Shown: piece after piece, positions 1,003 through 63,686 of the stretch
Position numbering within the stretch: position 1 is the first letter of the stretch
How the letters are laid out: each line of letters starts with the position of its first letter
Assembly (NCBI RefSeq): GCF_964340395.1
Contig: NC_135549.1
Span: forward strand, 7,548,342 to 7,612,341
Reading direction: 5' to 3'
DNA: 64,000 bases
Origin: Glandiceps talaboti
Taxonomy: Eukaryota; Hemichordata; Enteropneusta; Spengelidae
Notes under the pieces: model-generated
What the model was told of the DNA's origin: nothing
Seen by the model: only the letters and a program-made list of their open reading frames with translations
The model's database searches: none
Position numbers and translations under genes: made by a program

Positions 1003-2994
1003 ATTTGCTTAAAGGTTCACCAATCGATATGAAAATGGTAAATTTGTCAAATTTGCATAATAAATCATATTCTCATCTGTTTTCAACAATAGAAATTTCA
1101 AATGTTTGGTCGATTGTGGCAACAGTTGCAGGAGCTGTGTTTAGTCTTGTACTTCTCATTCTACTGGGATATCTGTATCAAATATATAGATACAGATCAA
1201 TCAAGATACCACGTCCAGGAAGTGTTCCAGATCAGGAAGTTGATAAAGGTTAGTTTATGTGTGTGAGGGCACAGAACACTTTTTTGCCAGCAAATTCACG
1301 GAACTCGAAAAAATTGTGCAAATGTTGTGTTTTTTTTATCATGAATGTTAAAATCTGGTTCACAATAAGCTTATATTATAGTGTAAATATTTGATTGTTA
1401 GCTATATACTTTGTTATACAGTGCCATTTGCATGTATGATTTTATTATTACAGGAACGGACCTAAAAATAGTTTCTCAATATAATAATACCTATGGTTTG
1501 ATAGTGAGATGTGTTCGAGGCTCTGTCATTGGCCAATCGCACATGCTTTAGCAAGTTATGTGTATGTAGAATATTACAAGTAAGTTTATACACGTAAAAA
1601 AAATTGTGATAAAATTTAGTCATGGCTACTCTGGCTTGTAATTATTCAATGCATGTCTTTGTTACCCCAAAATAGTTGCTTCATGCATGGGCATCCCATG
1701 GTCAGTACAAGTGGTGGCTCAGTGTAAAATGGGCAAATTGTCAATCGTACATCGTCATGGTAATTATACATTTTGCTAGTTTGCTCCATCCATTGATTTT
1801 GAGATCGTAATATGTGAATCGTGGGTTTGTTTATTCCTCACAGGGATTCTCAACCCCAAGATTCTTCTATTGTATACCAAAGACTGTGATTTACATGTGA
1901 AAGTAGTGGATCATTTTGCAAGATTCTTGACAAATCAGTTATACTGTGAAGTCAAACATGATGAGTGGGAAGTCGACAGTGTTGCTGCTGATAAGACAAA
2001 CTGGATTTTAACACAAATGGAAGAAGTTGATAAAATTATCGTCATAGCAACAGAAGGTACCCGGAGAAGATGGAATGCATTACGATCCCAAGAATCAAAC
2101 CCAAATATTCCATACACTGATGATTTGTTTAATGCTGCCATGATGATAATGAACAATGATTTCCAAGATCCAAATTCACCCCATCACAAAAAATACGTCA
2201 ATGTTCACTTCTCAGTTCAAAACTACTCGACAGAGACAAACATTCCACTACCAGTCAAAATGATTGGAAAGACATTTCGTTTACCAACAAACTTTGATAA
2301 GTTTTATCTGTATCTCCGTAATTTGCCATATGGGGGACCCAGAGGTTACAACCACGTGGAGAAATTGGATGAAATGTTAGAATGCAGTGATGAAGGTATA
2401 GCACTTTCTAAGGCTATCAAGGATATGACAGACTATGTCAGCAGAAAACCTGACTGGTATGGCTCAGTGGTTACCCGGCATGAAAACAACCAACTGTACA
2501 CAGAGGAGCTACATCATCAAAGACACAATGTGAGTAGCAATGGTTTTCTACCTAAAAAAGGGATCATCTCAAATAACAATGAGTCTTTCTGTTCTACTGG
2601 ACATACTAACAGAAGTAGGGAAGATGTAGAACTTGTTTCATACCGAGCTAACCCCTCACCTGAACTGGCAAATGGAAACTTTAACTCACCAGTAGTTTAC
2701 GAAGGTGATATTTACTGTGAAATTGGCAATGACACCATGCAGAAACCACCTAGTACATTATGTCAAGAAAGAGGTGATGAAGACAGCTATGAACCACACA
2801 TCGTAGTTTATAAAGGTGATAGTCACTTTGAAAGTGGCTATGGCACCATGCCAACACCACCTAGTACATTCTGTCCAGAGGACAGCTATGAACCACACAC
2901 TGATAGTTTTCGTTATGTTAATGCAGACTCTGATAGTGATGCCTCATCTGGATCTGACTTTGCATTGGCTGCTAACCGTAAAAGCCAAGAATAG
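1003..2994 (+). CDS. Gene A: IL-17R-like SEFIR receptor, 3' part (transmembrane exon + SEFIR exon)
   Basis: This is the 3' end of a type I membrane receptor; the ectodomain exons must lie left of the window. Two exons are seen: about 1003 (or 1015; both AGs keep phase 1)-1248, and 1844-2994 ending in TAG. The first encodes a short juxtamembrane stretch, a hydrophobic helix (SIVATVAGAVFSLVLLILLG) and a basic stop-transfer (YRYRSIKIPRPG). The donor g|gttagt and acceptor ctcacag|gg join in phase 1. The second encodes the SEFIR domain starting ILNPKILLLYTKDCD (box 1), with DKIIVIATEGT as box 2, then FYLYLRNLPYGGP, and a tail of about 170 residues. Unlike gene B there is no separate linker exon. 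The tail contains a 37-residue tandem duplication and ends with a FALAANRK motif shared with gene B. A poly(A) signal AATAAA lies at 3215-3220. The SEFIR assignment is strong; the exact 5' exon border is not. Confidence 0.85.
1844..2994 (+). CDS. SEFIR exon of gene A
   Basis: A single large terminal exon holds the whole intracellular SEFIR domain (roughly the first 150 residues) and the C-terminal tail. Visible SEFIR hallmarks are the opening beta strand with YTKDCD, the conserved helix HVKVVDHFARFL, the acidic CEVKHDEWE strand and the DKIIVIATEGT strand-turn. In known IL-17 receptors this domain pairs with the SEFIR of Act1/CIKS. The first 217 nt differ from the gene B exon (30948 onward) at only 5 positions by my count, while the remainder is much more diverged. 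The tail has several tyrosines in acidic or YxN contexts (DSYEPH twice, FRYVN), which are candidate phosphotyrosine docking sites by inference only. Confidence 0.9.
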
Positions 2995-3129
2995 TGCATA
3001 GCCTCGGTATGGATGGTTCAACCATATGATAGACTATGCTCAATTGGATATAAACTTCAAAATTGAACCCTGACTCCCTATTTTAAGGGAGTATCTACAT
3101 AGCAAAGGGTTAAAATACATAGACTACCG

Positions 3130-4265: not shown

Positions 4266-4460
4266 TGACATTCTGTGAATGCAAGGCTGACCATTATCAC
4301 ACTGATGTGATATCATGTTAAAGTTATCATTTTACAGTTTTGTTTGATTAATTGAATGTGAAAAAAATAAAATCAGTAATCAAAATTATATTTAATCCTT
4401 TCATGTAAAGATTTGTTGTATTTATTTTAGAAGTGAGAACAGTGAATAATTCCAAATACT

Positions 4461-4484
4461 GGGGGTGGGGATGGGGGTGGGGGG
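4461..4484 (+). other. G-quadruplex-prone G tracts
   Basis: Four G runs of 4-6 are separated by loops of 1, 2 and 1 bases, a textbook quadruplex-forming pattern, in otherwise AT-rich intergenic DNA. Confidence 0.6.
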
Positions 4485-6264: not shown

Positions 6265-32167
<25,903 letters not shown>

Positions 32168-40649: not shown

Positions 40650-43600
40650 TCTTTGGGGGGGGGATTACATCAAATCATATATCAGTTGCTCTATAACTTC
40701 TGCCAGTACAGAACTTGTGATTTAGCGTTAGTTGGAGGTAACCGTTTGATACTTTTCATTCATTTTTGTTGATTAAAAAACACTGCATTAGTTGGCGTAC
40801 CTCTATATAAGTCATTGATAATACTGTGTAAACTAGCTTGATGTCTGTCAGCAAATTGTGGGATATTTATCAGATTTGATCACCTGACAACCGAAAGTGT
40901 TACAATATTAAAGTACAAATTACATTAAAGTTGAAAATACGAACAAAATTTATGAAAATTATTGTTCAGTTACAGCTACCAAGATTTTACTAATATTATG
41001 GTGCATACATCATAAATAAAGAGAGATAAATATTGCAACCACTGTGTGTTATCTAATATCTTATTCATCAAGTAGCCAGTACTGGATATGAGTACGTGCA
41101 GTTCTTGTAGTTTAACTAAACCCGGCTACTGAATTCCAACATCTTATCTGGACAATTGTCATTGTCTTTGATAGCCGGACACAAACCACCTGTGGATTCT
41201 CAACTTTTTTATCTACTTTCCTGTCATGTTTATTTCAACAGACATCCACAGGCTTTACACTACCATGCAGTATCATAATACATGGTAAGTGTCTAACTTT
41301 TAAAACATGCTTTTGAGTGAAGGATTACCCTCCCATGCAGTATCATTCTGCATGGCAGGTTTCAAGTTTTGGGTTTATTCTCAGTACAGTTTTCTTCTAC
41401 TTTGTTGTTATTGATAACATATATGTCATAACAATATCAGAAGTATACAAAATACTATGACAGAACCCCATGACATGTGTATGCAAGTGTCAGTTGCCTA
41501 CGTGGGGTATTTGCATGAGTGCTTGCAGAGTTCTCTGCAGCAGCAAACACTGCAGACACAAGTGCAAATACCCCTGAGTACCTACACTGGAACTGACAGT
41601 TCTGTTATTATTACATATGTTTATCTTAAACAACAAATTTTAGTAAAAACATGAAACTGTGCGATCACATGCCTTCATGTAGAATGCATGAGTGTGTCCA
41701 CATTTGCATATCATTTGCATACATGTATGCAATACTGTTTTTGGTATTGCACTGTAGTGCAAATACCACTAGTATGCACATGCACCAGTGCAAGTAATCA
41801 CTGATGCATATGCAATACTATAAATTACCATTATCTGTTTATTGATTGATCTAACAAACTGATGTTTTAGTGATTGACTTAGCTGCAATAATTGTAGCGT
41901 TTGATGTGATTTTGAGGGCTTTTTCGTCTGTTTTTTTTCCTTTTTTCGTTCCGACGTTTAACTCGAATCAAACGCTACAATTCCTCTAAAGCAAACACAA
42001 ATAGACGAGACCACATTGAAAACGTGCCCATTTCAAAATGCTGCATGCCTTGCTACATTTGCCAATTTTGATTTAATTGGGGTACCTCTGAACACTTCTT
42101 GGGTCTTGAAGGCTCCGTAATTAATGTTGGCGTTAGGAAATATCAGATATTTTGCCAGGTATGGCGTAATTTAGCAGAAAAGTCCGCCCAACTTTGCGAT
42201 TCAGATCTGAATCGGTTCTGTCTAGTTGTGTTTGCATTAGAGGAATTGTAGCATTTGATTCGGGTTAAACGTTGGAACGAAAAAAGGCAAAAAAACAGAC
42301 GGAAACACCCTCAAAATCACATCAAACGCTACAATTATTGCAGCTATGATTGACTATACCAATTTGTTTTTTGTACAAGGGTTTCAATGTTACAGGTGTG
42401 ACATGGAAGTACATACTCAAGTCCACACCTTTTGCATTTCCTCTTTTCGATGAATAATTGATTTTACCTTAGATTCAGGTTGTCCTGGTGACTTGTATCC
42501 ACCTGTTGGATGGCATGATATCCCAACACAACCACAGAATGTCAAGGTTACAAACATTAAAGCCAGCTATCATTGGTCAGATGGTGTCACATCTGTCTAC
42601 CCAGCAATGAATATATCATGGAGTCTTGATCTAAAACATAGTAAGTAGAATTTATGTTGTTGGTCCTGGTGAGTTATATCTTCCTGTAAAATGGCATGAC
42701 ATTCGAAAAAAACCCAGAGAATGTCAAGGTTGAAAACATGTTTGACAGCATGTCACATCTATCATGTATCATGGAGTGTTATTCTAAAACACTGATTATA
42801 ATTTAGATTCATAGCAGGGTCAATAACCTTTATCAATAATACTAGATAAAATATGTCCATTAGTATGAAAATATCATATCTGTATCACAGGATTATTTAG
42901 CAAAAACAAATAGTATTAAAGGTTTCCACAGAACCAGGCACAAATGTTTAATATATGTACACCCAACAACATATATATATATATATATTGGTTTAGAAAT
43001 ATTATACATGTAACAGTCACTCATATATCTTTTTCACACCATCTTTTGACATATCACAAACTTTTACCACCAAAGCCTCATTCTCTTCATGTCCCCTTCT
43101 AGCCCAACCCAATACCTGCCAGTACCGTTACACTGCATTCAATTATTATAACTATAATATACAACCTACATGTATACAATGAGTGACAATGCACAAAGTC
43201 TGGAATCCAGGACACTTCAGAGAGTTCAATGATCTTTAAACTCTCCCATTTGTTGGGTCTGCAAACTGGCGATATACTTTTGGCACCAGTCCATTTGACA
43301 GAGGTGATCTACTTCAATTGTTACCTGTATTGTTGTGTGCACACATTTGTTTGGATAACTCAATTGCTTGTATTGTATACATCTTATAAAATGTATCTGT
43401 CAGTCAGTCACTCTAGGATAATTGACAAGGATTAAGAGGAGCAAAATAGGTTTTCTACAAGAATATCTGACAATGATTCTTATTTTGTTCTAATTAGTAT
43501 ACAATATATAATGATTTTTAAATGATAAATCAATTATTGTATGCTATGTTTGATTCTTATTGAAATGAAAATGAACAGAAAATTCTTTTAAAACAAAAAT

Positions 43601-46600
43601 GTATAAAACGAAGAAACTAAGTCCCTTTGTTGTCCATTATTGAATAGAGCTTAAACAAACCAAGTGTTTACCACCATAGCTATGCTGTTTAAGAATTCTA
43701 TTTCACTACCAGACAACATCTTATTGCTCAATAGATTTGTATCAAAACGTACACCTTAAAAAAGCAAGTTTAAAAAAAATGCACTCAACAAAATATTTAA
43801 AACAAACATGGTTGCCAATGTTATCAATATAGGTCACTCGGGATCAATTATAATAAAGACATTGTCACATATGGTCTTTACATTACATATATCATTTAAT
43901 GTGCTGAATCAGCATACATATTTTTGCTGAGCCAGCAATTTTTTTCCATTTTAACAGTTTGACAAACAGTTGCAAATCAAGGAGAACTCTTGTCAAATTG
44001 ATAAAATATTGTATACTAAAACATTTAGAAGAATGTGATGTCATTTGCAGTATTCACAGAAATGAGTATCAACTCTTTTGCCCTTACATTTTGTTTATAC
44101 TTTTAGTCTGGATGCCAACTGTGGTTTCTAACCAGTCTGGTCAAAGTCCCTCAATCAGCACAAAAAAGTTCTCTATCCAATCAGTGAACCCCAGCTGCTA
44201 TATAGTTAGTGAACTGCTGACAAATATACCATATTTGGACATTATATAATAGCCCAAATAAACACTAACTTTATGAGGCACTGTGTTATTGGTTAGAATT
44301 GTGTGGTTGATTAATAAAGACATGATGTTAATGACTGTGTGGGTGGCTGTGTATGAATTTTTAATTACATCTCATGCATCTCAGGACTTCTAGAGTAACT
44401 TGACTAGACTGTGAGTGAAGGTATAAATCGTAATGATACTGTATAGGAACTAGACTGTATTCATCATGCTCGCAATCATATAAAATTGTTTGATCAGTGC
44501 TTTTGTACTGAATCGTATGTCCTTCTTTATCTTTGCTTACCAAATATTACCCTAATGAAAAAGATGTTTTAATGAAAAAATCAGAAAATGTCAGAAATTA
44601 TGTAAATGCAAACCCATCAGTACAATTCAATAATTGTGATACAGATAAGATAAGATAAGATAAGATATAGCTTTATTACAACTGTATAGAAAATTGACAA
44701 TTCTTTTTGGGTATATAATAGTCTTGCTGCTAGACGTTCGGGCTTTCTTTCGATACTATAAGCGAATGAAGTTCGCAGTGAGCGTTTGCCCGAACAGTCT
44801 AGCAAATGTCAGTTTCAGACTGGACATTCCATTGAGATTAGTGGGTTGGGCCATATATGCATATATATACTTTAATATATTCAATCTCTGCATGCAGGTG
44901 TTGACAAACACACTTATGTCATTACTATGTCTTATCAGTTTATGGTAATTGTGAGTTTGATGAGTGTGTAGACGTTGTCATTCACATATTTCAGTTAACG
45001 CATTGGTGGTTATTTTTACAAGCCCCTCCTTAAGATGAATATGCATGAAAAATTAGCTATTGTCCTCTGTTTGTGTTTGTCGCTAATGCGGTTCTCTGAT
45101 TGGCAGTTATTTATATCCTGATGACATTTGCTAGACCTTGGATGTTCCATCCTCGATAGCGATGTTCGGTCGTTTGTCATATTGTATCAGAAGAACATCC
45201 GAGGTCTAGCAGATAGACTAGGTATATAAGTGCAAAAATGAAATATGTGATTTTGTGGGGCCATATTGATTCTATTCACACACAATTCTCTACAGTGCTA
45301 AAAAATTACCAGTGATGAAATCATCAAATGAATAGATATGTTTATCTTTAATTTGAATTATTTTCCTTTTTACTCTAATTATTTCCCTCATATACGGGTA
45401 ATATGTCTACATTTTCCTCACATTAGATCTCCACTATCTGAAAGGAGTCCAGGTGGCATTCATTGGATTGACCAATCACCAGTATATGTATCAATATTCC
45501 AGGTTTAATGTAATTAGATGTGTCACCTTTGACCTTTCATCTGCAGATTTTACCCAATCAGATGTAAGTATTATCAGATGGTAATTTGCAATACTGACCA
45601 CTCTGTTTTTGAAGCTGTTGTTTCAACTGTATGGTACTATAATAAGATGAATGACGTTAATGAAAGAAGTTAATCTCAAATTTTAAAGAAATCAAATTGA
45701 TCAATTATATTGAGTTATTTACTGTTGCAGCAAAATGTTTTAATTTCATCTTAAGCTGATCAAAGCATATGAATTTAGATTAATTTAAACAGTATGCTAT
45801 AAATAGTATGATTTAATAACTTATCTCTAATTATTGTAATTATTGATATATTGAATATTTTTAGCTATTTGACCTTGAACATAGAGGTCATTTTTATTGA
45901 TACTATTTCTGCAACTGAATTCAGTTCTTGCATCTATGTAGTTCTTATGTATGTAAAACTGACAAACTTTACTTGATTACTTGTAAACTTTGTGTTTTTC
46001 ACACAATATACAACTCTGGTAGCTGAGCCTTCAGTTGTATTCTAGGTTAGACACAAACTAAATCTATTGTTGCAATATGTTAACGTAAAAGTGATAAGCT
46101 ATTGAATAGACGTAGGTTTAATTAGTCTCAGTAGGGAGGTTTCCTAGTTTTATTGACAGAGTTCCATGAACTTGCAGTGTTACTGTTTTAGGACTTCCAA
46201 TGTTTACACTATCTTGATAACAACATGATTATATTTGAACAACCGAGAAACCGCTATGGCCCACTTGTGTAATCTACCACATTGAACATCTATCTTAGTA
46301 AATTGAAGGCTAGATTACCAAAGTAATATTTATAAATCTTCATACATTTCCATATTTTTAAAAAAAGGTTGTGTTGTATTCATAATTTCATGTTTTGACA
46401 TCATCGCAAACCACGGCCTCCTTTAGAGCACCGTCGAAACTTGCCATAAAAACGTTATTTCGAAGTGTAGCGGAAGAAATAACAGCTCTGGTTTGCGAGA
46501 ATGAGTTTTGAACATGTTGACTTAAAACATTGAGAACTGGGACAGATTTGACAGTTGGACATCGATTATAATTCCTTGTGGCATTTTTCTCTGTTGATTG

Positions 46601-49600: not shown

Positions 49601-52007
49601 AGATCAGCACCCTAGCCGCACCCAAATAGAAATATTATGTTCAATTTACAAATTGCACAACCGTCAGTTAACAACAATATTTTCACGTGGCAATTTATAA
49701 GCAAATGCCAAATTGCACGTATAGAATTAATCATTGCATTGAGCAATACCTAACAATACTTTATATTCATACGAACATATATGTGGTGTAGTGTTGCTGA
49801 CAATATATATTGAAATGATGTATTTTGGCGGGAATCTCACCCATAGCTGACGACATTGCAGAGTGCACTACAAATCAAATCGCCGTCCTCGGCTCGCCCC
49901 GTCCCCGCGTGACCTTTCCCCTTTTCGTCATATAATTACATTATAACCTCTGTGAATTTTCATACAAAACTTCTTGGAATAGAAGTGTTTACATGTAAAT
50001 TAACGTTATATGCCAGAAATACTTATCTCAATGTTGTCATCATCGCGTTGTCTACATGCTACTCGAGTCGAGGTCCAGTTTCGCGGGCTCTGACGTACTA
50101 CAGAAATAAACGTTTTTCCGAACAGGCCAGAGAGGGCGGTTGTCCTGCAAAATGTCCACGCTTTCATAGCTCATTGACATGAGTAAATACATCCCAAGGT
50201 AATTTCATATTGCAGGAGCTTCTCATGATCAAGTATCCATCACTATGTATTACAGAATCTAAATTCTAGGATTCAGTGCGGTTAAGTCTAGCTGCAAGAA
50301 TTGTGGCGTTATTTTTTTTTGAGCTTTTTAGCAAAAATGTTTGAATGAAACCCGGAATGCGATTATCCTGAAAGTATCTGGGTTGTCAAAGAAAGACATT
50401 TGGGGCTAAAATGTATGGAAATTTGAATTAAACAAAATCAAAATTCATAGTATCATATTGACACATTTTTTAATGAAAAAGAAACAAAGAAAAAACTAGG
50501 ACGATGTAGTTTTTGACTGATTGTTGTTAGCTGAACATGACAAATATGTTTTCTTGTATTTAACAAAGACTATATATTTATTCTACAATTCCTAAAAACC
50601 CTACTCATATTCCACATCTTTCATGTCTTTATATTTTATAGCTAACAAGTTTGGATTATTATTTCGATTGTGTCAAACCGCTCTCGCCACAATCATACTA
50701 TGCCGTCATGTTGCGAACATTACCTCTGGTGCTGACGTCACATGATGATATTACGTCACAGAGCAGCACAGTGTGGACGACCATCTCAACACCAGGTATG
50801 GCTCAACGAACTTGACATTGGTATGTCCCAATAACTAATCCGGACTATCTTTTAGGGAGCTTTGCATTGTACGGTAACAATTGTTTCAAATCTTAAGAAA
50901 ACTTACCGCGAAATGGTGATATTTGAGCACAAAGTAGTCCTACAGTCGAGACGACGTAGCAACACCAGATATGCATGGCTTGACATAATTGGTATGTCCT
51001 AATATAATAATAAACACGTACTACCTTGTAGTTTTTCATTGCACTGCAAAAGAAACAACCATATCTTCCCATATCTTGACACGCAGAATTGTTCTATCTG
51101 ACACCATCATCGCAGGAAAAAGTATAATTACAGGGACTATCTAACGACTAGAGTAGGCCTTCAGAATCGGCATTTCAGTGATGTCATCAAACCATTTCAT
51201 ATTTCGAGATGATAAAGTCTCAAAATTTGTCTTTGTGTAATGTTTTTGACGAGTCAGATCGGGGGACAACGTATTTACACATTTTTCAAACACTTTCATA
51301 TTAAAGTATGTACATGCCACCAATTCTCAGTAAACAATGGTGAAAAGAAGGCCGATTTGCCATTGGTATGTGAACTGTGTATATTGTTCACAAATTGTGT
51401 TTATGGTCCATTCTTTTTGCTTCTGTTTTGTAGTCTGTGGCAGTTTTGAAGCTCGTAATTTTGACGAATGCATTCATAGGTCTGTTGGATGTAAGTAATA
51501 AATACATATTTACTATAAAGTCCATTTTATCTGACGCCAACTCAATCAGTGGAAAATTCATTGAGCATCTTAAAAATATACTATTATGATATGATATGTA
51601 AGACTTACTCAAAATATATAATGTATTAATTTCCTCTTCAAATATATTTGTTATTATAATACTACTTGTAATCGAATATTAAATTTAGCTATACCTTTTT
51701 ATCCCTTGTTCACTGTTTTCCATCTGTTTTTGTTCTAGATGAAGCGTCTACGTGGGCACCACGTGACATGTTGACGGAATCTCAATATTATAACGAGGTT
51801 GTTGTAACAGTTGACCTACCTTCAGTCACATATCGCTTGGATATCATGACTATCTACGTATTTCGCTATAATGAATATACTTTCAACTGCTCAGTAGATG
51901 ATGCGCTTGTCTTTGAAGATGTTGAAGTTGTGAGTGTACTTTTTCTATTCAAATAAAACACGTGTCACAATGGTATACATTACACACACCAAGCTAACCA
52001 CATAAGC

Positions 52008-52056
<49 letters not shown>

Positions 52057-54824
52057 TGCATGATATACAGAGAAATATGTTCTTGCTTTTTCTTGGATGG
52101 CCACATAAGAAGAATTGTATAACCTTTGCTGCCAAAATGTTGACACAGTGTTTGGACATGTACAGGACCAGCAATCCTCTACTGATGTTGACCTTGAAAA
52201 GTTTTGAAGTTTGTGCAGCGGATGATAACTAACTCCTTGCTGCTGAATTTTAATATTCAAGATTTGAAATGTTTTAAACCTTTGTTCATTTACAGTATAA
52301 TGCACAGCTCCCTATGTATAAGGTACATATAGCATGTGTTTTTGAGACATGCATACATGTTGTGTTATGTTATTGCTTATTAAGGTGTCCTATGTGGACT
52401 TATGAATTATACAATGCTTAAACAAAATTTATAAACAAAAGAGCCACACCCAGCCCTCTGGCTTATAGGACACAAAAGAAAATTTCAAAATACATAAATA
52501 AATAAATAAATAAATATCACACACGTTTTAATTATAAATAAAGGTTTTCCTACGATTAAATGCTTCGTGTAGAAAGTTTGACAAAGATGATTTGACATAC
52601 AAAATGTTCAATCCGTTACATAGTGTAAATAATATGGTCGTGTATATGCGTGTGTGTCACAGTAGTAGGTGTGTGTGTACTTTCTTTGCAAAATAAATCG
52701 TGTACCTTTTCTTTGATTCTAAGATTTCAAGTACACACAATATAGAATCAGTTATCAAATAATATTTATATCAAACATATTACTACAAAAATAGCAGCGA
52801 TTGAAATATATAGCATGATCAGGGCTATCATTCTTTCTTGTCTTTCAATTTTGTTGTATTTTTTCCAACTACAACTTCTTCCCCTCTCGTTGTTGTTTTA
52901 GACATCTGAAAATACCTACAAGGTGACAAATTCAACTTTCTTAAGACATATAGTTAACAACATTCCCAAGGGCAAGTACTGTATTGGGGTAAGTATGCTA
53001 TTAACCTTGTGTTCCTAATTTGCGTTTTCTTTGTCATACTTTGTGTTCTGTTGTTTTTGTCTCGTTTTTATTTTTCGTAACTAATTTTTTTACTTTTGGC
53101 AACCATAAGACAGCTTCTGTAGCTGATTTTTGTGTTGAATAAAATAAATAAATAAATAATAAGTTTATAAAAAGAGACAAGAGACTAGTAGACCCTTTCA
53201 CAAGTGACTAGTTTTTGTTAGTTGCATTAATAAGTAAAGGGTGTCTTGTGAAAATAATAACAACAACTTATATCGACGTTACTTTCTACCTATATTATAA
53301 ACTGCGAATCCGAATTCAAAGTTAAGGTTATAATAAACTGCGAATCCCAATTCAAAGTTAAGGTCATCCTAAACTGCGAATCCCAATTCAAAGTTAAGGT
53401 TATTATAAGCTGTGAATCCCAATTCAAAGTTAAAGGTTATTATAAACTGCGAATTCCAATTCAAAGTTAAAACTGCGATTCCCAATTCAACACCATGGCT
53501 TCGTCAGTGTTTTCACAGATGAGCTTTCAGCAAACTATCATGCAGATAAACAAAAAAAACACATCAATCAATCAAGACAAACATTTATCATTATTGAACT
53601 ATAAAACGAACATTGAAGTTATATTCCAAAGAGACAATAACTATTCACAGTAAGACTTCTTAATATCAAGATTTATCAGTGAATGGGTCAAAAGTCTCGT
53701 CTCAAGATATCCTCATGACTAACTTACAAATAAATTGAACGAAACTGTGCCCATGTTTAAAGACGCTTGAAAACGTAATTAATTATTATACACTTGTGGT
53801 AATAATCCAGATTTTCCTAGGCATAACAGTTCAACACAATGATCACAATCATGTATTATTAATGTGATCGGAATAAATTTAATACATATCACATCATGTG
53901 CTCATTTCGTTTTTAGATTCGACCCTACCCAAGCGATATATCAGCATGTAAAAGAGGACCAGAAGTGGGAGCGTTGGTCATGTGTACTTTAACTATATCA
54001 CAACCTGTACACGTGATAGGTATAAACCATCATCTCACTATGTAATAATGTTTATATCATATTTGCAGTTTATGATTTATGATTTTTAATATGGAAGTGT
54101 TGCTTGCATTGAAATCTGCAAGTGAGATACACTCATTGTACGAACTATGTATAGTATGTTATTGTGCTGTACTATTTTTCTGACCTTACAATGCTAGGTG
54201 AAAGCTAGTCAGAGTTGTTACAACGTTTGAGATGAGTTTTGTAGACCATATATATTAATTTCCTTTTTATGTCAAGAATTCTAATATGAGATACAGTTGT
54301 GCTATTTTTTCATCCTATTTCAGATGATCCATGTGAAGGCGAACCATGTGGTAGCCATAGCAACTGTACCAGCGCAGGGGAAAAGTTCTTTTGCAACTGT
54401 ACTCATGGTTATATCATGCACAAAGGCTCTTGTAGAGGTGAGTTATGATTTATAAATAGCTTTAATGAAGTTGAAAATGTTTGTCAAAATTTAGGATTTT
54501 CCAATAAATTCTTACATTTCTACTTTTTTCGAAAAAAATCAGTTAATCTAAAGACAACTTTGATAATTTAACTTTAGATATAACACATATTACTTTCAAT
54601 TATCCTTTTTCCGTAGTGAATCCATGTGAGTTGGGTTCTTCCGAAATATGTGGTCAACATGGTATCTGTCGAATTTCCAATGATCTGTTGAATATCACAT
54701 GTCAATGCCTAGATGGCTACATAGAAATCGATCACATATGTCAAGGTAAGATTTGGCGGGAAATGATGTTTATAGTAATGGCATGGAAAGCGCTACACTA
54801 TTGTCGTCGTCGTCGTCGTCGTCG

Positions 54825-54858
<34 letters not shown>

Positions 54859-57129
54859 ATTCAAGAGTTATAGAATATACGTTATCCTGCTTTACATTGT
54901 AAATGATACATTATGTGTCACTTCTTGAACGCATGAAAGATTGTGTTAGATGGTCACAGCTCAGCGTGATCTATCATAGATATAGACAAAAAATGTGGCA
55001 TAAAGTTTTAAAGAAAATAATTTCAAGATGAAAATAGATGTGAGTTTCGCTCGATGCATGATTTGATGTGACAGTACTTTAGACGATCATAGTATACTGT
55101 GTCATAAATATCCATATTTTGTTAATCTACAAGACGGTGAACAGAAGGTGACTTATATCATCATTGCATCTCTCGGTGGAAGTATGGTTGGTTTACTTCT
55201 TTTGATTCCTTTACTTTGCTGGGGTTTATGGAAGAGGAAGAAAGTAAAGATACCTCATTTACCGATGACTCCAACACCACCACCACAACAGCAACAACCA
55301 ACAAGTAAGCTAATTATTTGGTTCACTCATTGACCGCTTTGTGTATTTCTAGAGGACCAAAGCTTGGCCAACATTTAGCCTCACTGGTGACTAGTTACTG
55401 AAATTGTCATCACATACATTATACCTACGTACATTATGAACTATGTATGAAATGTGTTCTTATATTATTGTAATGGTAATCATGCGTGCTGCCCCCCCCC
55501 CCCCCACACGCACACGCGCATTATTATAACGAGGCGTCAGTATATAAGTTTATAACAGTTGTGCTTTGGTTTATAACATAACGTAGAAAGCGATACAAAT
55601 GTTAGTTTTTAAGAAGAAAATGAGGTTGAGTCTTAATTCGGTCTTACTTGACTTGGGGAAGTTTAAAAAGAAGTATACATAACAGAATGATGTCGAAGAT
55701 TAACGTCATATTTATTCAGTAATGTCAAAGCCAAGAAATTGTGAGTAATAATACATCATTGGATATGAAATATGGGCATAGTATGTTATTACAAAATGTA
55801 TCTCTCAAATGTTTTTGCATGACATAATATGTCTCGCCAGTTGTTAGAAACTCTTAGTAATTCAATAATATACTTGCAATCGGTGTATAAATTGATTGGA
55901 ATATTTTGTTTTGCATTCCGCTGTTCGGTGTCGGTTCATAAGCTGTTGACTGACTCGAATGTCTCGACCCATTCATCTGAATTTAAAATGTTCCCATTGT
56001 TTGTATTCTATTGACAGGTGTATCAAGTCAAAAGATAGATTGTGACAATCCACAGTTACTTCTACTTTATTCAAATGACTGTGATCGTCATGTCCAAGTC
56101 GTTGAGAACTTTGGCAGATTCCTAGCCATTCAAGGTGGATGTAACGTACACTTGGATCTCTGGCAGGCTTCCGAAATTGCTTCAGCAAAAACCGAATGGT
56201 TATTCCAGAAGATCAAAGCAGCAGACAAAATCATTGTAATTGCTTCAGAAGGAACCAAACAGAGGTGGCAGGAACGATGCAATAATGAAAACACTCAAGA
56301 ATGCCATGATCCCAAAGATGACTTTTTAAGCGCAGCTTTAAATATTATCAGCAGTGATTTTAATTTAAGAGAACGGTCTGAACGGTATGGCAAATATGTG
56401 TCTGTCTATTTTGAATATAGTGACTATGAAGATATACCAGAACCGTTGAGAATCATGGGAGCAACCTTTGAGTTGATCAAATCAATGGAGAAGTTTTATC
56501 TCTACTTAAGAAACGTCAAAAGTAGGTCAGTAGTGGGTTATTGTAAGGTGCAGGATATTCAAAACATGATGGAAAGTTGTGAAGGTGAATCGTTACTGGA
56601 AGCCATTTCCTTAATGATGCAATATAAGACCTCAAACCCTAATTGGTACAGAGAGGCTTTGAATGAAGCTGACTATGAACAGATCGCACTAGGACAACAA
56701 TCTTTACACCTCGTTGACGACAGCACAAAGGATGATGGGAGAAAACGGGAAACAGAAACAGTGTGTAGGGAAAGTGAAAATAGCCAATTCGTATCAAGAA
56801 GTGACGACGATGGATATCAGTCAGTATACAGTTGTGGGTTTAATAACAAGGAAAGTTTGAAATCTACTCTTGTTTCATTGACACAAGACACAGAAAATGA
56901 CGAGAAAATTGAACAGCTTTGCTCGTTGTTACCGTCCCAACATCACCCTGAGACACTAGATACATACCAATATGACGAAGAGTGCAAAGATTTCTACACG
57001 ACTTCACATTCGACGTCTCAGTTTCATTTTATTCAACCCAGTATTATTATGAAGCAGAGTAGGGACAGTCTGACGTCATCTGAGTTCGGAGCATTGGCAG
57101 TGGAGATGAACAATATACACCCACTATAA
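37925..57129 (+). CDS. Gene C: IL-17R-like receptor with D1/D2, two EGF-like domains, TM and SEFIR (13 exons)
   Basis: Exons: 37925-38071, 41242-41284, 42473-42640, 45427-45563, 50642-50795, 51434-51490, 51739-51929, 52902-52988, 53917-54019, 54324-54437, 54617-54745, 55134-55304, 56018-57129. The total is 2613 nt (870 aa) with consistent phases and GT-AG borders throughout. The signal peptide begins MFCLTSIGIMLIAWCYLVVV; the frame is open back to 37793 but with no earlier ATG. D1/D2 matches gene B exon by exon: the MNISWSLD strand, LKGVQVAFIGLTNH, YYFDCVKPLSP, VCGSFEARNFDEC, STWAPRDM, and CKRGPEVGALVMC at the end of D2. EGF-like domains occupy about 363-443. TM is about 452-476 (YIIIASLGGSMVGLLLLIPL) with WKRKKVK after it. 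SEFIR follows LLLLYSNDCD. Gene C is more diverged from A and B than they are from each other. It is probably a cytokine receptor of the same class. Confidence 0.88.
38072..41241. other. Gene C intron 1 (3.2 kb)
   Basis: It contains the (TTG)n microsatellite at 40597-40648 and a unit of the 4.9-5.2 kb tandem repeat near 40815. No exon was seen. Confidence 0.65.
40597..40648. repeat. (TTG)n microsatellite
   Basis: About 17 TTG units followed by a G run; poly-Leu/Val/Cys frames over it are artefacts. Confidence 0.95.
41881..42345. mobile_element. Non-autonomous DNA transposon with about 125 bp terminal inverted repeats
   Basis: The left end, GCTGCAATAATTGTAGCGTT through GATGTGATTTTGAGGG, TCGTCTG, CGTTCC and CAAACGCTACAATTCCTCTAA, is mirrored at the right end, finishing CAATTATTGCAGC. 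The flanks are TA on both sides, a possible TA target duplication. The unique centre is about 215 bp without coding capacity. End fragments of the same family occur at about 10583 and 50289. Confidence 0.85.
42657..42800 (+). pseudogene. Decayed duplicate of gene C exon 3
   Basis: Just downstream of exon 3 (42473-42640) the intron carries a degraded copy. It shares GGTCCTGGTGA, the ATGGCATGACAT block, AGAATGTCAAGGTT, ATGTCACATCT, TATCATGGAGT and TCTAAAACA in the same order as the exon. Small deletions break the frame and no donor follows, so it is a relic of a local tandem duplication rather than an alternative exon. Confidence 0.75.
44104..44458 (+). mobile_element. Composite MITE-like element, second full copy
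   Basis: Colinear with 15300-15667, sharing GTCTGGATGCCAAC, CAATCAGTGAACCCC, GACAAATATACCATATTTGG, GACATGATGTTAATGACTGT and the end GGAACTAGAC. Confidence 0.75.
44643..45215. mobile_element. Element with GATAA repeats and two hairpins
   Basis: A (GATAA)n run (44643-44668) and ATAGAAAATTGACAATTCT match the fragment at 23150-23230. The hairpin GCTAGACGTTCGGGC / GCCCGAACAGTCTAGC spans about 44727-44807, and GCTAGACCTTGGATGTTC / GAACATCCGAGGTCTAGC spans about 45128-45213. Both hairpins begin with GCTAGAC, so they may be termini of one element. Confidence 0.5.
48416..48450. repeat. 12 bp-stem hairpin
   Basis: GGAGATATTCCT pairs exactly with AGGAATATCTCC across an 11-base loop. Confidence 0.75.
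49855..50175. promoter_or_regulatory. CpG-rich patch inside gene C intron 4
   Basis: The run ATCGCCGTCCTCGGCTCG, CCCCGTCCCCGCGTGACC and, further on, TTTCGCGGGC and GAGGGCGG stand out from AT-rich surroundings. It could be an internal promoter or enhancer or a fragment of a GC-richer repeat; there is no direct evidence for either. Confidence 0.25.
52009..52052. repeat. (AC)n microsatellite in gene C intron 7
   Basis: A run of about 21 AC units, 80 bp after exon 7. Confidence 0.95.
53291..53489. repeat. 36 bp tandem repeat in gene C intron 8
   Basis: About five units of ACTGCGAATCCCAATTCAAA plus GTTAAGGTTAT start at 53301, 53337 and 53373, then become irregular. Confidence 0.85.
54324..54745 (+). 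CDS. Gene C EGF-like exons 10-11
   Basis: Exons 54324-54437 and 54617-54745 each encode one EGF-like domain with six cysteines, opening DDPCEGEPCGSHSNC and VNPCELGSSEICGQHGIC and carrying CNC and CQC pairs. Both are phase 1-1, and the intervening intron is only 179 bp. The first aligns best with gene B EGF1 (same DDPC start immediately after D2). Confidence 0.92.
54802..54859. repeat. (CGT)n(CAT)n trinucleotide repeat
   Basis: Seven or eight CGT units change to about eleven CAT units, just 57 bp after the last gene C EGF exon. The Arg/His tract in the open frame is intronic. Confidence 0.9.
56018..57129 (+). CDS. SEFIR exon of gene C
   Basis: The terminal exon after attgacag|gt begins SVSSQKIDCDNPQLLLLYSN, so it has about eight residues more before box 1 than genes A and B. 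SEFIR signatures are DRHVQVVENFGRFL, DKIIVIASEGTKQRW and KFYLYLRN. The tail is rich in acidic residues and serine and ends SSEFGALAVEMNNIHPL, where FGALA aligns with the FALxAN motif of genes A and B. The stop is TAA at 57127-57129. Confidence 0.92.
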
Positions 57130-58709: not shown

Positions 58710-61700
58710 ATGAAGTACCTCCGTCCATTCGTGTCAGTACTTCATATAGTAGTATATGGTATTTGTGCAATCCACTGTGGATCTGACGATAACTGGCGGG
58801 AACCATGTATCGAAAATAACGGTTGTAGTCAACAGGTTGGTGTTTTATTATATACATCCGTGTGTTAGTCTTTATTTCTGCCAATCAATTATGACACTTC
58901 TTCTGATATTTACCAGTAGAACTCTTAATTAATTCTCACTTCGAGATGTTCAGTCAAATATTGTTTCTAAGTTCCGCCTGACAGGTATTGTTCTGTCAGT
59001 TCTGTATTGAATTCTCGTTCCAGCCACATGACTATGTCTGACGTCTATGAATAACCCCCTGCCTTGTTCTGTACATTGACTACCGTTATCACAACCTGGG
59101 CTACTTTGGTATGCGGAACATAAAACCGCAGTTGATAATTAGAATATGAATGGCATATAGTATTAAAACGAGTAAAGCTTGGGCCTTATAGTCTAAGCTA
59201 GTGATATGTTGTAATAATAGCCTACGTGTAGTACAAGACAGTCAATATCTGAAAACGAAAGAACGTCTGTGATCTGTTGTAATAGCCTACCTGTACTACA
59301 AGCTAGTCAATCTGAAAACGAAAGAACGCATATTCAAGGAATTTGAAATAATCAGCATTTATATTTGTTCTTTCTATTTTCAACAAAATGTAGTCGGATT
59401 TCTACCGTGGAAATTTGATGACATGAGACACGAGTCGTGTATTTATATCATTTGCCAATAAATCAAAGAAAAGGCGTCTTCCAATCACCTACAGATTTCT
59501 CAATAAGATATATAGTAGATGCATTACATGTATTGATTCTTGATAAAAACAGGGGATATAATACAGCACTGTACTTGTACTGAGTAAACAAGGAACTAGT
59601 TGGTATTTGGTTATAAAATCCAATATATGTACATGTATCTAAAGCATTCCATTGATGTTACACTCACTCTAATCTGATAGTTTATAACATTCCTCTATCG
59701 TGTTGTTGTAAACCGATAAAGTTGATAAACAATCAATCTATTATAACTATTTCCTTATTACTTTTATAATACAGTAACGCCATTGATATTGGATTATAAT
59801 ACTGCATAACCCCCCCCCCCCACACACACACACACACATGCATGCATGCATGCATGCATGCATACATACATACATACATACATACATACATACATACATA
59901 CATACATACATACATACATACATACACACACTAACGTTTAAACTCACTAAAGAACTCCTTTACAGTGAGTTACTCACTGCGATGTGTGTGCAAAGTAGAT
60001 CATAATATTTGGACAATTCTCCCTTCTATATCCAAGGTTTCCCCAACTACAACATGGCCGTGTACTATTCATAAACACAATGGTGAGTAATATTCATACC
60101 ACATCATACCATACCGTTAATAAGTAAAAAATACCTAACGCAGTTAAGGATGGCTACTTTCATGTCGAAAGGAGCAACAAGAAAAAACACCAAGAAATAA
60201 GAAATAAACGGTCATATCTTACGACATGCAAAGTAGTTATGAATCCTCATTAATTGGGATGGATGGATGGATGGATGGATGGATGGATGGATGGATGGAT
60301 GAATGGATGGATGGATGGATGGATGGATGAATGGATGGATGGATGGATGGATGGATGGACCGACGGACAGACTGGTGCGTGGATGGCCGGGTGGATGAGA
60401 GAGGGGAATGGGTGGATGGATTGATCGATGGGCGGGTTGGGTGGGTGGGTGGGTGGATGTATGGATGGATGGACGGATGGGCAGATAGATGGGAGCGTGA
60501 ACTGATGGACGGAAGGATGGCTAGATAGATGGATGGATGGGTGCGTGCGTGGATAGATAGATGGATGGATGGGTAGATTGGAGGTACAGGGACGGATGAG
60601 TGAGTAGCTAGAGTAATATATAGTACATAGAAAGTTATTGAACGTAAATACTTCAAAACATTGTAATTATTTATGCTGAAGGACGAATTCGAACGAGAGG
60701 CTCTTGTCATCGTAATTGTACCGATTTCCATTGTGTAAATTAAAGTTATATTAGTGAACATGTTGAAACTTCGAATTGTGCGTGCTTTATTCGTAACCCA
60801 AAAACAATGATATGTGTTCAGTATACATCGAACGCTGGTGTGGTATACAGTGAAACTAGTCGCATATAATATCGCCATGAATTCAGACATAGCAAATTTG
60901 TGGAAGAAAACAATCTGTGTAATACTGTGTACAAGTCATGTTTATTTCGCAATCTTTTGTTGTGATTATGATGTATTGATTTGTAATAAATATCACGTGA
61001 ATTTTTTTCACCTGCAGTTACAGGATGCACAAAGGATCCATTCTTTCCAATGGTAGCTCAGTATGAGCTACCATCGCAACCCGTTAACTTGAAGATTAAC
61101 TGGTATCCTGTCAGTCATGTACTTTTGGATCAGCATGACACATTTCTAGCTTTAAATGTATCTGTAGACATTGATTTGACAACAGGTATGGACAACATTT
61201 AGATGTTATTCCCCAATATTTTTCTTCTTTAAGCCAAGGAAACTACGAGTGACCAAAGGGGTCTTTGTCACTACCAGTCAATGGACGAATAGTGACAACC
61301 CTAAGGTCACTTGAATCAGTATTTTCTGACTGAATGGAGAAAAGTGTTGGAGAATAACATAGTTATACCAACGCCAGTAATATCAAAGAAAAATGTTACG
61401 CAAAGTACATGTTATGGTAATTTTGAAAGTTTTGACTATACTTCGAATACAGCAGAACCAGTGACGTAGACGCACGTTGTCGCGACGTATACGCGCGTTC
61501 TCGTGACGAAGAACGATATTCCTCATAAGCTTAAATGGTCCGTGCATGGTTTATTGGTGCTACATTTGGTATCGTGGAACGAATTAAACAAATTTGTCCA
61601 ATCGCATGATTTGCTATGTATACGAACTACATGTATGCTTTGGACAATGGTATATTGAAATATACTGACGTACACTTAATATTACAATATGTTTCAGAAC

Positions 61701-63686
61701 AAATGCCACGAGGCTTATTATCCTGGAAAGCGTACGATAATCGATGTCATAACGCATAATTATACACAATACTCTAAAAAAATTATTCCTACACTAGTTT
61801 TAGAGTAAGTCAACTATTACTATTTGGAATTTATCCGCATTTATTTTTAAATACATGTACAAGAAAATCTAATAATTTAAAGTTGATAACATATCTTCTA
61901 TTTTTAACATGTTATAACATGTTGTTTTACTTGGCTTTGCTAGTACATGTAACTCGATTTTTTTTTTACAAACACAGGTTCATCCAATCTTCAGGGTATT
62001 CATTTTATTATCCGTGGTCTACAAAAAAGTGGGGTTTTCCACTACGATTACTTTAATCAGGAAATTTGTCGAACTTATAATCTGTCGTCTGCCGATACAA
62101 GATGGAGTTCTGATGTAAGTATGAATGTTTTAGAAATAAAAAGCTATCTGTTTTATTTATTTAGAGAGAGTGGTGGCATGCAGAGACAGACAGACAGACA
62201 GACAGAATGACTGACTGTCTGTCTGATTGACTGAAGATAGACACACAGAGAAGCAGAAGAGAAGGGGAAAGGAGAGAAAGGGGGGGGGCAATGGGATATA
62301 ATTGGCGATTTGTGTCTAATTTAGACATGTATATGTAATTCGTATATTTTTACGAATTGCGACACTTTCTATATCCAGAAAGGAAACACATTAAACTGAC
62401 CATGCAGAACAAGTGTTATAATTATTTGGTTACCACTTTCTTGCTGTTTTCTTGTAACCCTGCTGCACTTATTTGTCCAAGAATCAACGCCTTTTCTTCA
62501 TTCACTAGTATTACATGGACAATGTCACCTTCTACTATGACTGCTTTCGTCCAATGTCGCCGAACGTCCTCTATCAAGTTCAGGTTATATTACTACCTAC
62601 CTCTGATACTGGAGTAATGAAAAGTATCTCAAAGGATTACAGAATGCCATGTAAGTACGTTATACAATTTAGAATTGTATTTTCTTATACATTCTGTTTT
62701 TGTAAATCTTCCTTATTGAACCTAGTGAGAGGTGTAATCATGCATGCTACAAGTACAGGATTGTATTCCATAAGTCAGCCATGCCATAACCAAAACTGTT
62801 TAACGTTCTAATTAATGATATCAGGGATGATATGTTGAAAAATGATTCCATTGTCAGTGTTATAGATTCCTTATAATATTTATGCACTTTTTGCGTAATT
62901 GTAAACACAATCAAAATCACGAAGCCTGAAACAAAACGTTGCCTTGCTCGACAAAAATCTCACCAATACTGCTATATTTTGTCGTATGGTTCAACAAAAA
63001 TCTTACTAACAGTGCTACACTTTATCGTCTGGCTCAACAAAAATCTTACCAACAGTGCTACATGTTATCGTGTTTGTCGACAAATATCTGTCAATCTTTA
63101 TAATTCATATACCTACCTGTACAAGTGTATATTTTTCCACAGCGTGTTCCGACCACTCTGGATTATTTTATGAATGCGATGGTGAGTATGTGTCACAATT
63201 GTGTATGACGTAAGAATGCCATGAATATAGTAACTTCAACCTGAACCATAATTTTCTATGGCTATGGCTGTGACATTTTGTCTGTCCATAATTTGGACTA
63301 AATATATGTTAATGTTTCGATGGCGATATTGAAAGATGAAATCATTTGTAGTTTAAATACTTAAAAAAAAACATTTAGAAGGTAAATGTTTAAAGTCATC
63401 AGTGGGTAAACGTTCAAACATAGACCCTACACGAAAGGGTCAATAGTTTAAACAAGATGATTATCAGTCACTGTGCCTCAATGAAATGTTTGCTTGCAAA
63501 TTCAATGATATACCTGTAGAGTCTGATGACGCTGCCTCTTGGGGACCAAGCATTATTGACATCATATCTATATACGAGACGGTGAACCTGACATTTGACT
63601 TGCCTCCACCCGAAATGGATCTTAATAGTTTTGTAGTATCTTTGTTTAAGGAAGGTACTGAGATTACCTACAAAGTCGTCCAATTG
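58710..63686 (+). CDS. Gene D: IL-17R-like receptor, 5' part (exons 1-7; continues beyond the window)
   Basis: Exons: 58710-58835, 60037-60082, 61018-61185, 61978-62114, 62509-62650, 63143-63181, 63520-63686; exon 7 ends at donor ttg|gtaagt and the gene runs off the right edge. The signal peptide is [20 protein letters not shown], followed by [13 protein letters not shown]1 matches genes B and C: exon 2 has [10 protein letters not shown], exon 3 a [10 protein letters not shown] strand, exon 4 [12 protein letters not shown] with EICRTYNLS, exon 5 [11 protein letters not shown]. Exon 6 is the short [13 protein letters not shown] junction and exon 7 starts D2 ([18 protein letters not shown]). 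Exon 3 is exactly 168 bp, as in genes B and C, and exon 4 is 137 bp as in gene C. EGF, TM and SEFIR exons are expected to the right. Numerous N-glycosylation motifs (for example NVS, NLS, NVT, NLT) fit an extracellular domain. Confidence 0.85.
59809..59931. repeat. C run, (CA)n, (CATG)n and (CATA)n compound repeat
   Basis: Successive simple-sequence blocks in gene D intron 1. Confidence 0.95.
60259..60600. repeat. (GGAT)n degenerate satellite in gene D intron 2
   Basis: Pure GGAT units (60259-60360) pass into diverged GGNT/GGGT units to about 60600. Long low-complexity open frames on both strands (up to 217 codons) come from it. Confidence 0.95.
61200..61460. repeat. Dispersed repeat copy (family 1), diverged
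   Basis: TTATTCCCCAATATTTTTCTTC, then GGTAATTTTGAAAGTTTTGACT and CTTCGAATACAGCAGAACCAG, parallel the copies at 3950 and 20515. It lies in gene D intron 3 and is followed by a CpG-dense stretch (61470-61515). Confidence 0.45.

What the first reader, a model, noticed from the sequence alone, without database searches (positions are those of the whole stretch)
1003..63686. Head-to-tail array of four IL-17R-like SEFIR receptors
Four paralogues on one strand fill the window and both edges cut through members, so the array is probably larger. Exon order, splice phases (0,1,1,0,1,1,0,0,1,1...) and even exon sizes (exon 3 is 168 bp in genes B, C and D) are conserved, while introns share almost nothing. 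Vertebrate IL-17 receptors are few; a clustered expansion suggests a diversifying immune receptor locus in this animal.
Basis: partly seen in the sequence, partly recalled or inferred. Interest (0 to 1): 0.88.

Follow-up and report, generated by a model that had tools for sequence, protein, structure and literature searches.

The report
Tandem IL-17 receptor gene array
A marine animal, probably an acorn worm, carries a row of IL-17-type cytokine receptor genes with extra EGF-like modules, next to a small family of intracellular proteins that share the same signalling domain, so one chromosome region holds most of the IL-17-receptor-type signalling domains found in this genome.

Summary
Four IL-17R-type genes (A-D) lie head to tail on the + strand. 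A and D run off the window; the array continues with a fifth receptor (E) and a receptor-like ectodomain without SEFIR (D'). The ectodomain profile finds IL-17RA first among PDB sequences (5.5e-6). New here: 1-3 EGF-like modules before the membrane in each SEFIR receptor modelled; three minus-strand SEFIR-CARD genes directly downstream; and a 210-nt stretch opening the SEFIR exon, nearly identical between A and B though most of both genes is far diverged, best read as recent gene conversion. Eight of 11 SEFIR matches in the genome lie in 124 kb. A Death-SEFIR (Act1-type) gene sits elsewhere; 18 IL-17 ligand matches exist, eight in one cluster. Mitochondrial code and gene order suggest an enteropneust hemichordate. 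No positive selection was shown; splicing, ligand binding and immune function are inferred. New variant of a known kind.

The parts
1003..1248 (+). Gene A: juxtamembrane/transmembrane exon (phase 1-1; acceptor uncertain, 1093 also possible)
   Evidence: hydrophobic stretch and splice model; A's other exons lie at -14866 to -3527, left of the window
1844..2994 (+). Gene A: terminal exon, SEFIR + cytoplasmic tail
   Evidence: Pfam SEFIR 1.8e-21; terminal exon model
1846..2055 (+). A/B near-identical tract (5 differences in 210 coding nt), proposed gene conversion
15124..15291 (+). Gene B exon a (168 bp), D1 part
   Evidence: splice scan; weak in leave-one-out, E 0.1
16081..16214 (+). Gene B exon b, D1 part
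   Evidence: leave-one-out E 4.3e-19
16933..17089 (+). Gene B exon c, D1 part
   Evidence: leave-one-out E 1.7e-12
18520..18573 (+). Gene B microexon c2 with C...EC pair
   Evidence: splice scan with a Cys pattern
18790..18900 (+). Gene B exon d, D2 part; visible piece before a run of 100 N
   Evidence: leave-one-out E 6.3e-8; N run 18901-19000
19442..19552 (+). Gene B exon e, D2 part
19912..19996 (+). Gene B exon f, end of D2 with Cys pair (donor uncertain; 20119)
22726..22854 (+). Gene B EGF-like module 1
   Evidence: Cys pattern and homology to other members; not over a Pfam EGF cut-off
25430..25555 (+). Gene B EGF-like module 2
   Evidence: as module 1
26354..26479 (+). Gene B EGF-like module 3
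   Evidence: as module 1
27689..27784 (+). Gene B transmembrane exon
   Evidence: splice model with hydrophobic stretch
28736..28798 (+). Gene B short cytoplasmic exon
30948..32167 (+). Gene B terminal exon, SEFIR + tail (30950-31159 is the A/B tract)
   Evidence: SEFIR 2.7e-20
42473..42640 (+). Gene C exon a (168 bp)
   Evidence: leave-one-out E 6.6e-10
45427..45563 (+). Gene C exon b
   Evidence: leave-one-out E 6.9e-12
50642..50795 (+). Gene C exon c
   Evidence: leave-one-out E 3e-10
51434..51490 (+). Gene C microexon c2
   Evidence: only in the run with the lower exon penalty
51739..51929 (+). Gene C exon d
   Evidence: E 6.5e-6
52902..52988 (+). Gene C exon e
   Evidence: splice scan only
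53917..54019 (+). Gene C exon f (weak donor)
54324..54437 (+). Gene C EGF-like module 1
   Evidence: Cys pattern and homology; no Pfam EGF match at E <= 1
54617..54745 (+). Gene C EGF-like module 2
   Evidence: as module 1
55134..55304 (+). Gene C transmembrane exon (weak acceptor)
   Evidence: hydropathy-led splice scan
56018..57129 (+). Gene C terminal exon, SEFIR + tail
   Evidence: SEFIR 2.2e-29
61018..61185 (+). Gene D exon a (168 bp)
   Evidence: leave-one-out E 5.2e-6
61978..62114 (+). Gene D exon b
   Evidence: leave-one-out E 4.4e-16
62509..62650 (+). Gene D exon c
   Evidence: leave-one-out E 1.9e-13
63143..63181 (+). Gene D microexon c2
63520..63686 (+). Gene D exon d; D continues to its SEFIR exon 69372-70234 beyond the window
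   Evidence: leave-one-out E 1.1e-8

Best explanation
A tandem birth-and-death array of IL-17 receptor genes in an ambulacrarian animal, most likely an enteropneust hemichordate. Each full member encodes an IL-17R ectodomain (two fibronectin-III-like domains, exons a-f), one to three EGF-like modules as a stalk, one transmembrane helix and a SEFIR domain in a single terminal exon. Proposed working: IL-17 dimers, from a repertoire seen as 18 ligand matches, bind the D1-D2 part; the SEFIR recruits SEFIR adaptors, namely the Death-SEFIR Act1 homologue (another chromosome) and possibly the SEFIR-CARD proteins encoded directly downstream, which would couple the receptors to CARD/NF-kB assemblies. 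Ectodomains diverge while part of the adaptor-docking SEFIR is kept alike, in A/B by a recent gene conversion. D' would act as a soluble decoy or as a second ectodomain spliced onto E. Shown by computation: gene content, domain order, homology, linkage, the A/B tract. Inferred: splicing, ligand binding, signalling, immune use.
For: SEFIR over the Pfam cut-off in all five array receptors and both dispersed ones (model-based E-values). PDB sequence search: the SEFIR profile finds IL-17RA 4nux at 2.8e-26 and IL-17RB 3vbc at 5.3e-15; 3 of 9 matches with E <= 1 are IL-17 receptors, the next is at 0.013. The ectodomain profile of 7 members finds IL-17RA/RB in the first 10 of 14 matches (5.5e-6 to 0.014). 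Ig_ILCR1 over its cut-off in D', below it in A, D, E, C10, C15. Leave-one-out recovery of exons b, c, d 18 of 18. One splice-phase plan. Linkage: 8 of 11 SEFIR matches within C1:7550196-7674068; two ectodomain queries (E, C15) over 590 Mb match only the C1 array and C15. Tract: 2 of 61 synonymous codons differ in codons 1-67 of the SEFIR exon against 42 of 131 in the rest (Fisher 2e-6), while the same block is saturated against the C15 receptor (pS 0.86 and 0.89). SEFIR-CARD: F CARD 7.2e-17 in two stretches and SEFIR 4.7e-10; G CARD 3.9e-12 and SEFIR 2.4e-10. Act1: Death 2.3e-9 and SEFIR 1.2e-14 on C18. Ligands: 18 PF06083 matches, 8 within 92 kb on C24.
Against: No RNA: joins, start exons and signal peptides are unproven. 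Pfam's own IL17R_fnIII_D1 stays below its cut-off (A 0.0036, C15 0.0048); B's D1 piece matched no Pfam family at E <= 0.1 and gene C matched SEFIR only. No Pfam EGF family reached its cut-off in any model scanned; the modules are named from their cysteine pattern and weak matches. Exon a homology is weak for B and D'. The SEFIR tree does not resolve C, D, E, C10 or the two reference receptors. dN/dS below 1 on the A/B ectodomain. C15's model has no TM exon.
Confidence: 0.85

Rival explanations
1. The array is mostly decaying: some members (D, D', perhaps C) are pseudogenes, so it is a graveyard of one or two working receptors.
For: D exon e not found; D' has no EGF-like, TM or SEFIR exon that passed the scans up to E, only simple repeats; C has a weak f donor and a weak TM acceptor.
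Against: None of the 11 SEFIR matches has a stop inside; the homologous exons are open with AG/GT sites in one phase plan; A/B dN/dS is 0.20 in the EGF-like part and 0.29 in D1-D2, which speaks for A and B only.
Confidence: 0.1
2. D' and E are one gene: a receptor with two ectodomain units in series, since exons a-f form a phase 1-1 module that can splice onto E's exon a.
For: D' exon f has a possible, weak phase-1 donor (after 78484) and E exon a a phase-1 acceptor (85812); no convincing signal-peptide exon for E, a weak candidate for D'.
Against: Signal-peptide exons were not convincing for B and D either, so absence says little; D' exon f can also end at an in-frame stop.
Confidence: 0.3
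3. The A/B tract reflects coding constraint or an assembly error, not gene conversion.
For: Within the first 200 codons alone the shuffle test is weaker (73 of 20000); the tract starts at the exon edge.
Against: The same codons have pS 0.68-0.89 in A or B against C15, C, D and C10 (the 6 such comparisons made); the window's run of 100 N lies elsewhere, in B exon d.
Confidence: 0.15
4. The receptors serve a neural or developmental cytokine system, not immunity.
For: IL-17 signalling is neuromodulatory in C. elegans (PMC7190641, abstract start and passages); crustacean CFSH may act through an IL-17R (PMC10604874, search listing and start of abstract only).
Against: Sea urchin larval IL-17/IL-17R act in the gut response to bacteria (PMC5457136, abstract and passages).
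Confidence: 0.2

Closest known systems
Vertebrate IL-17RA/IL-17RB
   Same: D1-D2 ectodomain plus TM plus SEFIR; sequence match over D1 and the start of D2, and over the SEFIR
   Different: No EGF modules in the vertebrate receptors (recalled, no call); no one-to-one orthology resolved
Sea urchin SpIL17R1/SpIL17R2 (PMC5457136, passages)
   Same: Long ectodomain, TM, SEFIR; SEFIR in the last exon of SpIL17R2
   Different: That paper reports only two SEFIR genes and no Act1; here 11 SEFIR matches, a tandem array, an Act1 homologue and SEFIR-CARD genes
Mussel IL-17R isoforms (PMC8353272, passages)
   Same: Invertebrate expansion of IL-17R (6 isoforms)
   Different: The passages seen do not describe tandem arrangement, EGF modules or linked adaptors
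Act1/CIKS, including Death-SEFIR forms of non-amniotes (PMC7190641, passages)
   Same: SEFIR joined to a death-fold domain, as in genes F-H
   Different: F and G carry CARD, not Death, and lie beside the receptor array; the Death-SEFIR gene is on C18

Membership tests
IL-17 receptor | cytoplasmic SEFIR domain | tested here: met
   A, B, C, D, E, C10, C15 over the Pfam cut-off; nearest PDB chains are IL-17RA/RB. D' has none found
IL-17 receptor | two fnIII-like ectodomain modules (D1, D2) | tested here: met
   profile matches IL-17RA/RB at 5.5e-6 to 0.014, over D1 and only the start of D2; Ig_ILCR1 on D2 over cut-off in D' only; IL17R_fnIII_D1 below cut-off. Sequence evidence only, no 3D test could be run
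IL-17 receptor | single transmembrane helix between ectodomain and SEFIR | tested here: met
   hydrophobic exon modelled in A, B, C, D, E, C10, 6 of 7; not found in the C15 model; hydropathy and eye only
IL-17 receptor | binds an IL-17 cytokine | not testable with these tools
   ligand matches exist in the genome
Act1/CIKS adaptor (for genes F, G, H) | Death domain (non-amniote form) plus SEFIR | tested here: not met
   F and G have CARD plus SEFIR and no Death match at E <= 1; H was not scanned, it is read by its likeness to G; the C18 gene meets it
TIR-domain receptor | TIR rather than SEFIR intracellular domain | tested here: not met
   SEFIR is the best family; no TIR match for A, C, D, E at E <= 1 nor for B's EGF-TM-SEFIR piece at E <= 0.1
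EGF-domain protein | EGF module recognised by a curated family model | tested here: inconclusive
   six-cysteine pattern, but matches stay below cut-off (E: cEGF 0.00056; C15: EGF 0.002; A, B, C15: Pvs28 EGF) and none in C and D

The most novel reading that the evidence does not exclude
The locus is an integrated IL-17 signalling cluster: EGF-stalked receptors with freely diverging ligand-binding parts beside a private SEFIR-CARD adaptor family, with gene conversion keeping the receptors' SEFIR docking surfaces compatible with shared adaptors, so new ligand specificities can be added without rewiring the signal output; D' adds a soluble decoy or double-headed receptor.
Probability: 0.3. Interest if true: 0.72.

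Novelty: new variant of a known kind. Interest (0 to 1): 0.52.

Why it matters
Sea urchins were reported to have two IL-17 receptors, many ligands and no Act1 (PMC5457136, passages). A relative with a receptor array, an Act1 homologue, a second SEFIR-CARD family and clustered ligands would let one ask how ligand and receptor repertoires expand together, whether CARD can stand in for the Death domain downstream of IL-17R, and whether gene conversion separates the evolution of the binding and signalling halves of a cytokine receptor.

Tried and rejected
A test by 3D fold was wanted, but the prediction tool took no jobs; by its stated rule I also judged that a spliced protein would not be accepted and did not send one. 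Looked for EGF-like, TM or SEFIR exons belonging to D': only simple repeats. Looked for D exon e with relaxed splice sites: nothing convincing. Signal-peptide exons: weak candidates for A, C, D', none convincing for B, D, E. Positive selection on the ectodomain: not seen, dS near saturation. SEFIR tree of 13 rows: only A+B, (A,B)+C15, F+G+H and G+H hold at 80 or more; the rest is open, with five long branches flagged. Considered TIR/Toll or pure EGF receptors: rejected by SEFIR and IL-17RA matches.

Papers: searches on SEFIR with CARD, on SEFIR with EGF, on IL-17 receptor with gene conversion/tandem and on SEFIR or IL-17R in invertebrates or hemichordates. Among the papers listed I saw no title or abstract start that describes a SEFIR-CARD adaptor, an EGF-bearing IL-17R or an IL-17R array in a hemichordate. 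The lists were capped (for example 20 of 629, 15 of 271, 12 of 128), so this is not proof that none is in print. Passages only were seen of PMC8353272, PMC6321704, PMC7190641, PMC5457136, PMC11175523, PMC2697986, PMC12909245 and PMC11797021; of the two last, which count SEFIR in a sponge and ctenophores, nothing seen bore on SEFIR-CARD. PMC6321704 mentions a placozoan SEFIR-Death protein.
Full report
What was checked. The window is G000:C1:7548342-7612341 of a 590 Mb, 47-contig assembly. I fetched the flanks, so that 194 kb could be read as one piece (window coordinates -29999 to 164000), plus 30 kb each on C10 and C15 and 20 kb on C18, and built exon models with a small script that scores splice sites, codon use and homology. 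There are no transcripts, so all joins are models. Coordinates below are window coordinates; those below 1 or above 64000 lie outside it.

The array. Profiles of the shared exons find six ectodomain units on the + strand: A (first exon found -14866; TM 1003-1248; SEFIR 1844-2994), B (15124-32167), C (42473-57129), D (61018-70234), D' (75069-78498) and E (85812-93432). A-E each end in a single SEFIR exon. The plan is a, b, c, c2 (a microexon of 39-63 bp with a C...C pair), d, e, f, EGF-like modules, TM, (a short cytoplasmic exon in B), SEFIR. EGF-like modules in my models: A 3, B 3, C 2, D 1, E 1, D' 0; of the dispersed receptors C15 has 3, and C10 has 2 such ORFs, of which its model kept one. 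They are named from their cysteine pattern; no Pfam EGF family reached its cut-off (best: cEGF 0.00056 in E, EGF 0.002 in C15; none in C and D). Exons a-f together, and each EGF-like exon, are phase 1-1 modules that could be gained, lost or doubled without a frame change; that is inference from the phases.

Is it chance? Leave-one-out profiles over 11,556 ORFs recovered the left-out exon in 6 of 6 cases for b (E 4.3e-19 to 2.4e-7), 6 of 6 for c (4.3e-15 to 3e-10) and 6 of 6 for d (5.1e-10 to 6.5e-6), against best reversed-ORF matches of 0.02 to 0.84 in those runs. For exon a the result is mixed: A 6.6e-6, C 6.6e-10, D 5.2e-6, E 0.015, B 0.1 (a reversed ORF reached 0.0019 in that run) and D' not found. 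Exon a of B and D' therefore rests on place, phase and size. Exons c2, e and f were not put to this test.

Family. SEFIR E-values for the models: A 1.8e-21, C 2.2e-29, D 1.6e-20, E 6.1e-10, B 2.7e-20, C10 8.8e-34. Against PDB sequences, the SEFIR profile of nine proteins (receptors and F, G) finds an IL-17RB/RA construct (1.8e-44), IL-17RA (2.8e-26) and IL-17RB (5.3e-15); the other six matches with E <= 1 are G-protein chains and a bacterial SEFIR, at 0.013 or worse. The profile of seven ectodomains finds IL-17RA in 7 and IL-17RB in 3 of the 14 sequences with E <= 1; they are the first ten (5.5e-6 to 0.014), the other four being unrelated at 0.39 or worse. The match covers profile positions 17-205 of 293, i.e. 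D1 and the start of D2, and includes the C...C pair and a W-P motif. Pfam's Ig_ILCR1 passes its cut-off only in D' (27.6 against 27 bits); IL17R_fnIII_D1 never passes.

Genome context. Pfam SEFIR finds 11 places, 8 of them in 124 kb of C1 (the tool warns that counts of large families are lower bounds): receptors A-E, then three minus-strand genes F, G, H (about 104.7-125.8 kb). Queries with the E and C15 ectodomains match only the C1 array and C15; these are exon-wise searches and did not reach the C10 receptor, so other distant copies may be missed. F has SEFIR, two CARD stretches and a weak fn3 match (6.6e-5, below cut-off); G has SEFIR and CARD. H was not scanned with Pfam beyond its SEFIR; G and H differ little (pS 0.06 and pN 0.03 in the SEFIR exon, 0.02 and 0.02 in the CARD exon) and their four longest aligned blocks are 94-96% identical, a recent duplication. 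A SEFIR-CARD query finds F, G and H on C1, and beyond them only weak partial matches: a CARD stretch on C1 and one on C18, and receptor C's SEFIR. The SEFIRs of F, G and H form one clade (96/99). The C18 gene has a Death domain and a SEFIR, the Act1 plan of non-amniotes (plan described in PMC7190641, passages). PF06083 finds 18 ligand matches, 8 of them within 92 kb on C24; two on C2 hold a stop.

A conversion tract. A and B are sisters (100/99). Their D1-D2 part is near saturation at synonymous sites (pS 0.67, dS 1.7, dN/dS 0.29); the EGF-like part is less diverged (pS 0.52), codons 67-200 of the SEFIR exon less still (pS 0.41 and 0.38), the tail strongly (pS 0.70). But the first 67 codons of the SEFIR exon have pS 0.05 and pN 0.02, 5 differences in 210 nt, ending abruptly, and the 46 or so intron bases just upstream are not alike. 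Synonymous codons differ in 2 of 61 there and in 42 of 131 in the rest of the exon (Fisher 2e-6); the longest run with at most two differing codons (65) was reached in 0 of 20000 shuffles over the whole exon, but in 73 of 20000 within the first 200 codons, so the contrast inside the SEFIR itself is weaker. Constraint is unlikely, because the same block has pS 0.86 and 0.89 against C15 and 0.68-0.80 against C10, C and D. Recent gene conversion is the best reading. That it serves to keep the adaptor-facing part of two receptors alike is inference.

Which animal. C40 carries COX1 three times at 15435-bp spacing, a mitochondrial concatemer. Around COX1 ARAGORN gives tRNA-Asn(-), a TCA-anticodon tRNA(+) that I read as Trp, Ala(-), Tyr(-) and, after COX1, Ser(-); the frames on either side I take by eye for ND2 and COX2. 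The four ATA codons of COX1 can be read as Ile, three of them at places where I recall Ile or Val in other animals; AAA is absent from the ND2, COX1 and COX2 frames. PMC2697986 (passages) states that ATA=Ile is shared by echinoderms and hemichordates, that echinoderm gene orders are very different, that Balanoglossus has virtually the vertebrate order and no AAA, while Saccoglossus uses AAA for Lys.

Function. By family knowledge, SEFIR-SEFIR contacts recruit Act1 to IL-17 receptors; in C. elegans ACTL-1 then gathers IRAK and MALT1 (PMC7190641, passages). Sea urchin IL-17R1 acts in the larval gut response (PMC5457136, abstract and passages). I therefore propose IL-17 sensing at epithelia with two adaptor routes: Act1, and the linked SEFIR-CARD proteins. 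The second route is a guess from domain content and linkage.

Verdict. The 'diversifying' claim is not shown. What lifts it above an ordinary gene family is the combination: EGF-stalked IL-17 receptors in tandem, linked SEFIR-CARD genes, and a mosaic of diverged ectodomains with a homogenised start of the SEFIR exon.

Noticed in passing
window coordinates 104684-125771 (right of the window; L016-L018): Three minus-strand genes joining SEFIR to CARD (F also has a weak fn3 match); G and H are a recent duplicate pair.
   Followed up: partly
window coordinates 134579-159868 (right of the window): Three minus-strand gene copies; of pieces from two of them, one gave CARD 8.5e-15, one fn3 3.9e-5 (just below cut-off) and one a weak TRADD-like N-terminal match (0.01, below cut-off). 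Their CARD region resembles that of F-H.
   Followed up: partly
L025/L026, G000:C18 about 1827830-1836530, minus strand: Act1/CIKS homologue: Death domain 2.3e-9 and SEFIR 1.2e-14, the SEFIR split over two exons.
   Followed up: yes
G000:C24:4499245-4590765: Cluster of 8 IL-17 (PF06083) matches on both strands; 18 in the genome.
   Followed up: no
window 2696-2998: The cytoplasmic tail of A holds an internal duplication (35 aa, 60% alike); both copies hold D-S-Y-E-P-H.
   Followed up: no
cytoplasmic tails of A, B, C and C15 (4 of 7 by pattern; C10 by eye): Short shared motif near the C-terminus of the type SS.S.FAL..N, not found in D and E: possible docking motif.
   Followed up: partly
G000:C40: Mitochondrial DNA assembled as a concatemer, COX1 three times at 15435-bp spacing: probably an assembly artefact.
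   Followed up: no
window 10601-10999 and 60212-60935: Minisatellite-like repeats readable as long ORFs: probably not genes.
   Followed up: no
window 18901-19000: Run of 100 N inside exon d of gene B: assembly gap or withheld stretch.
   Followed up: no
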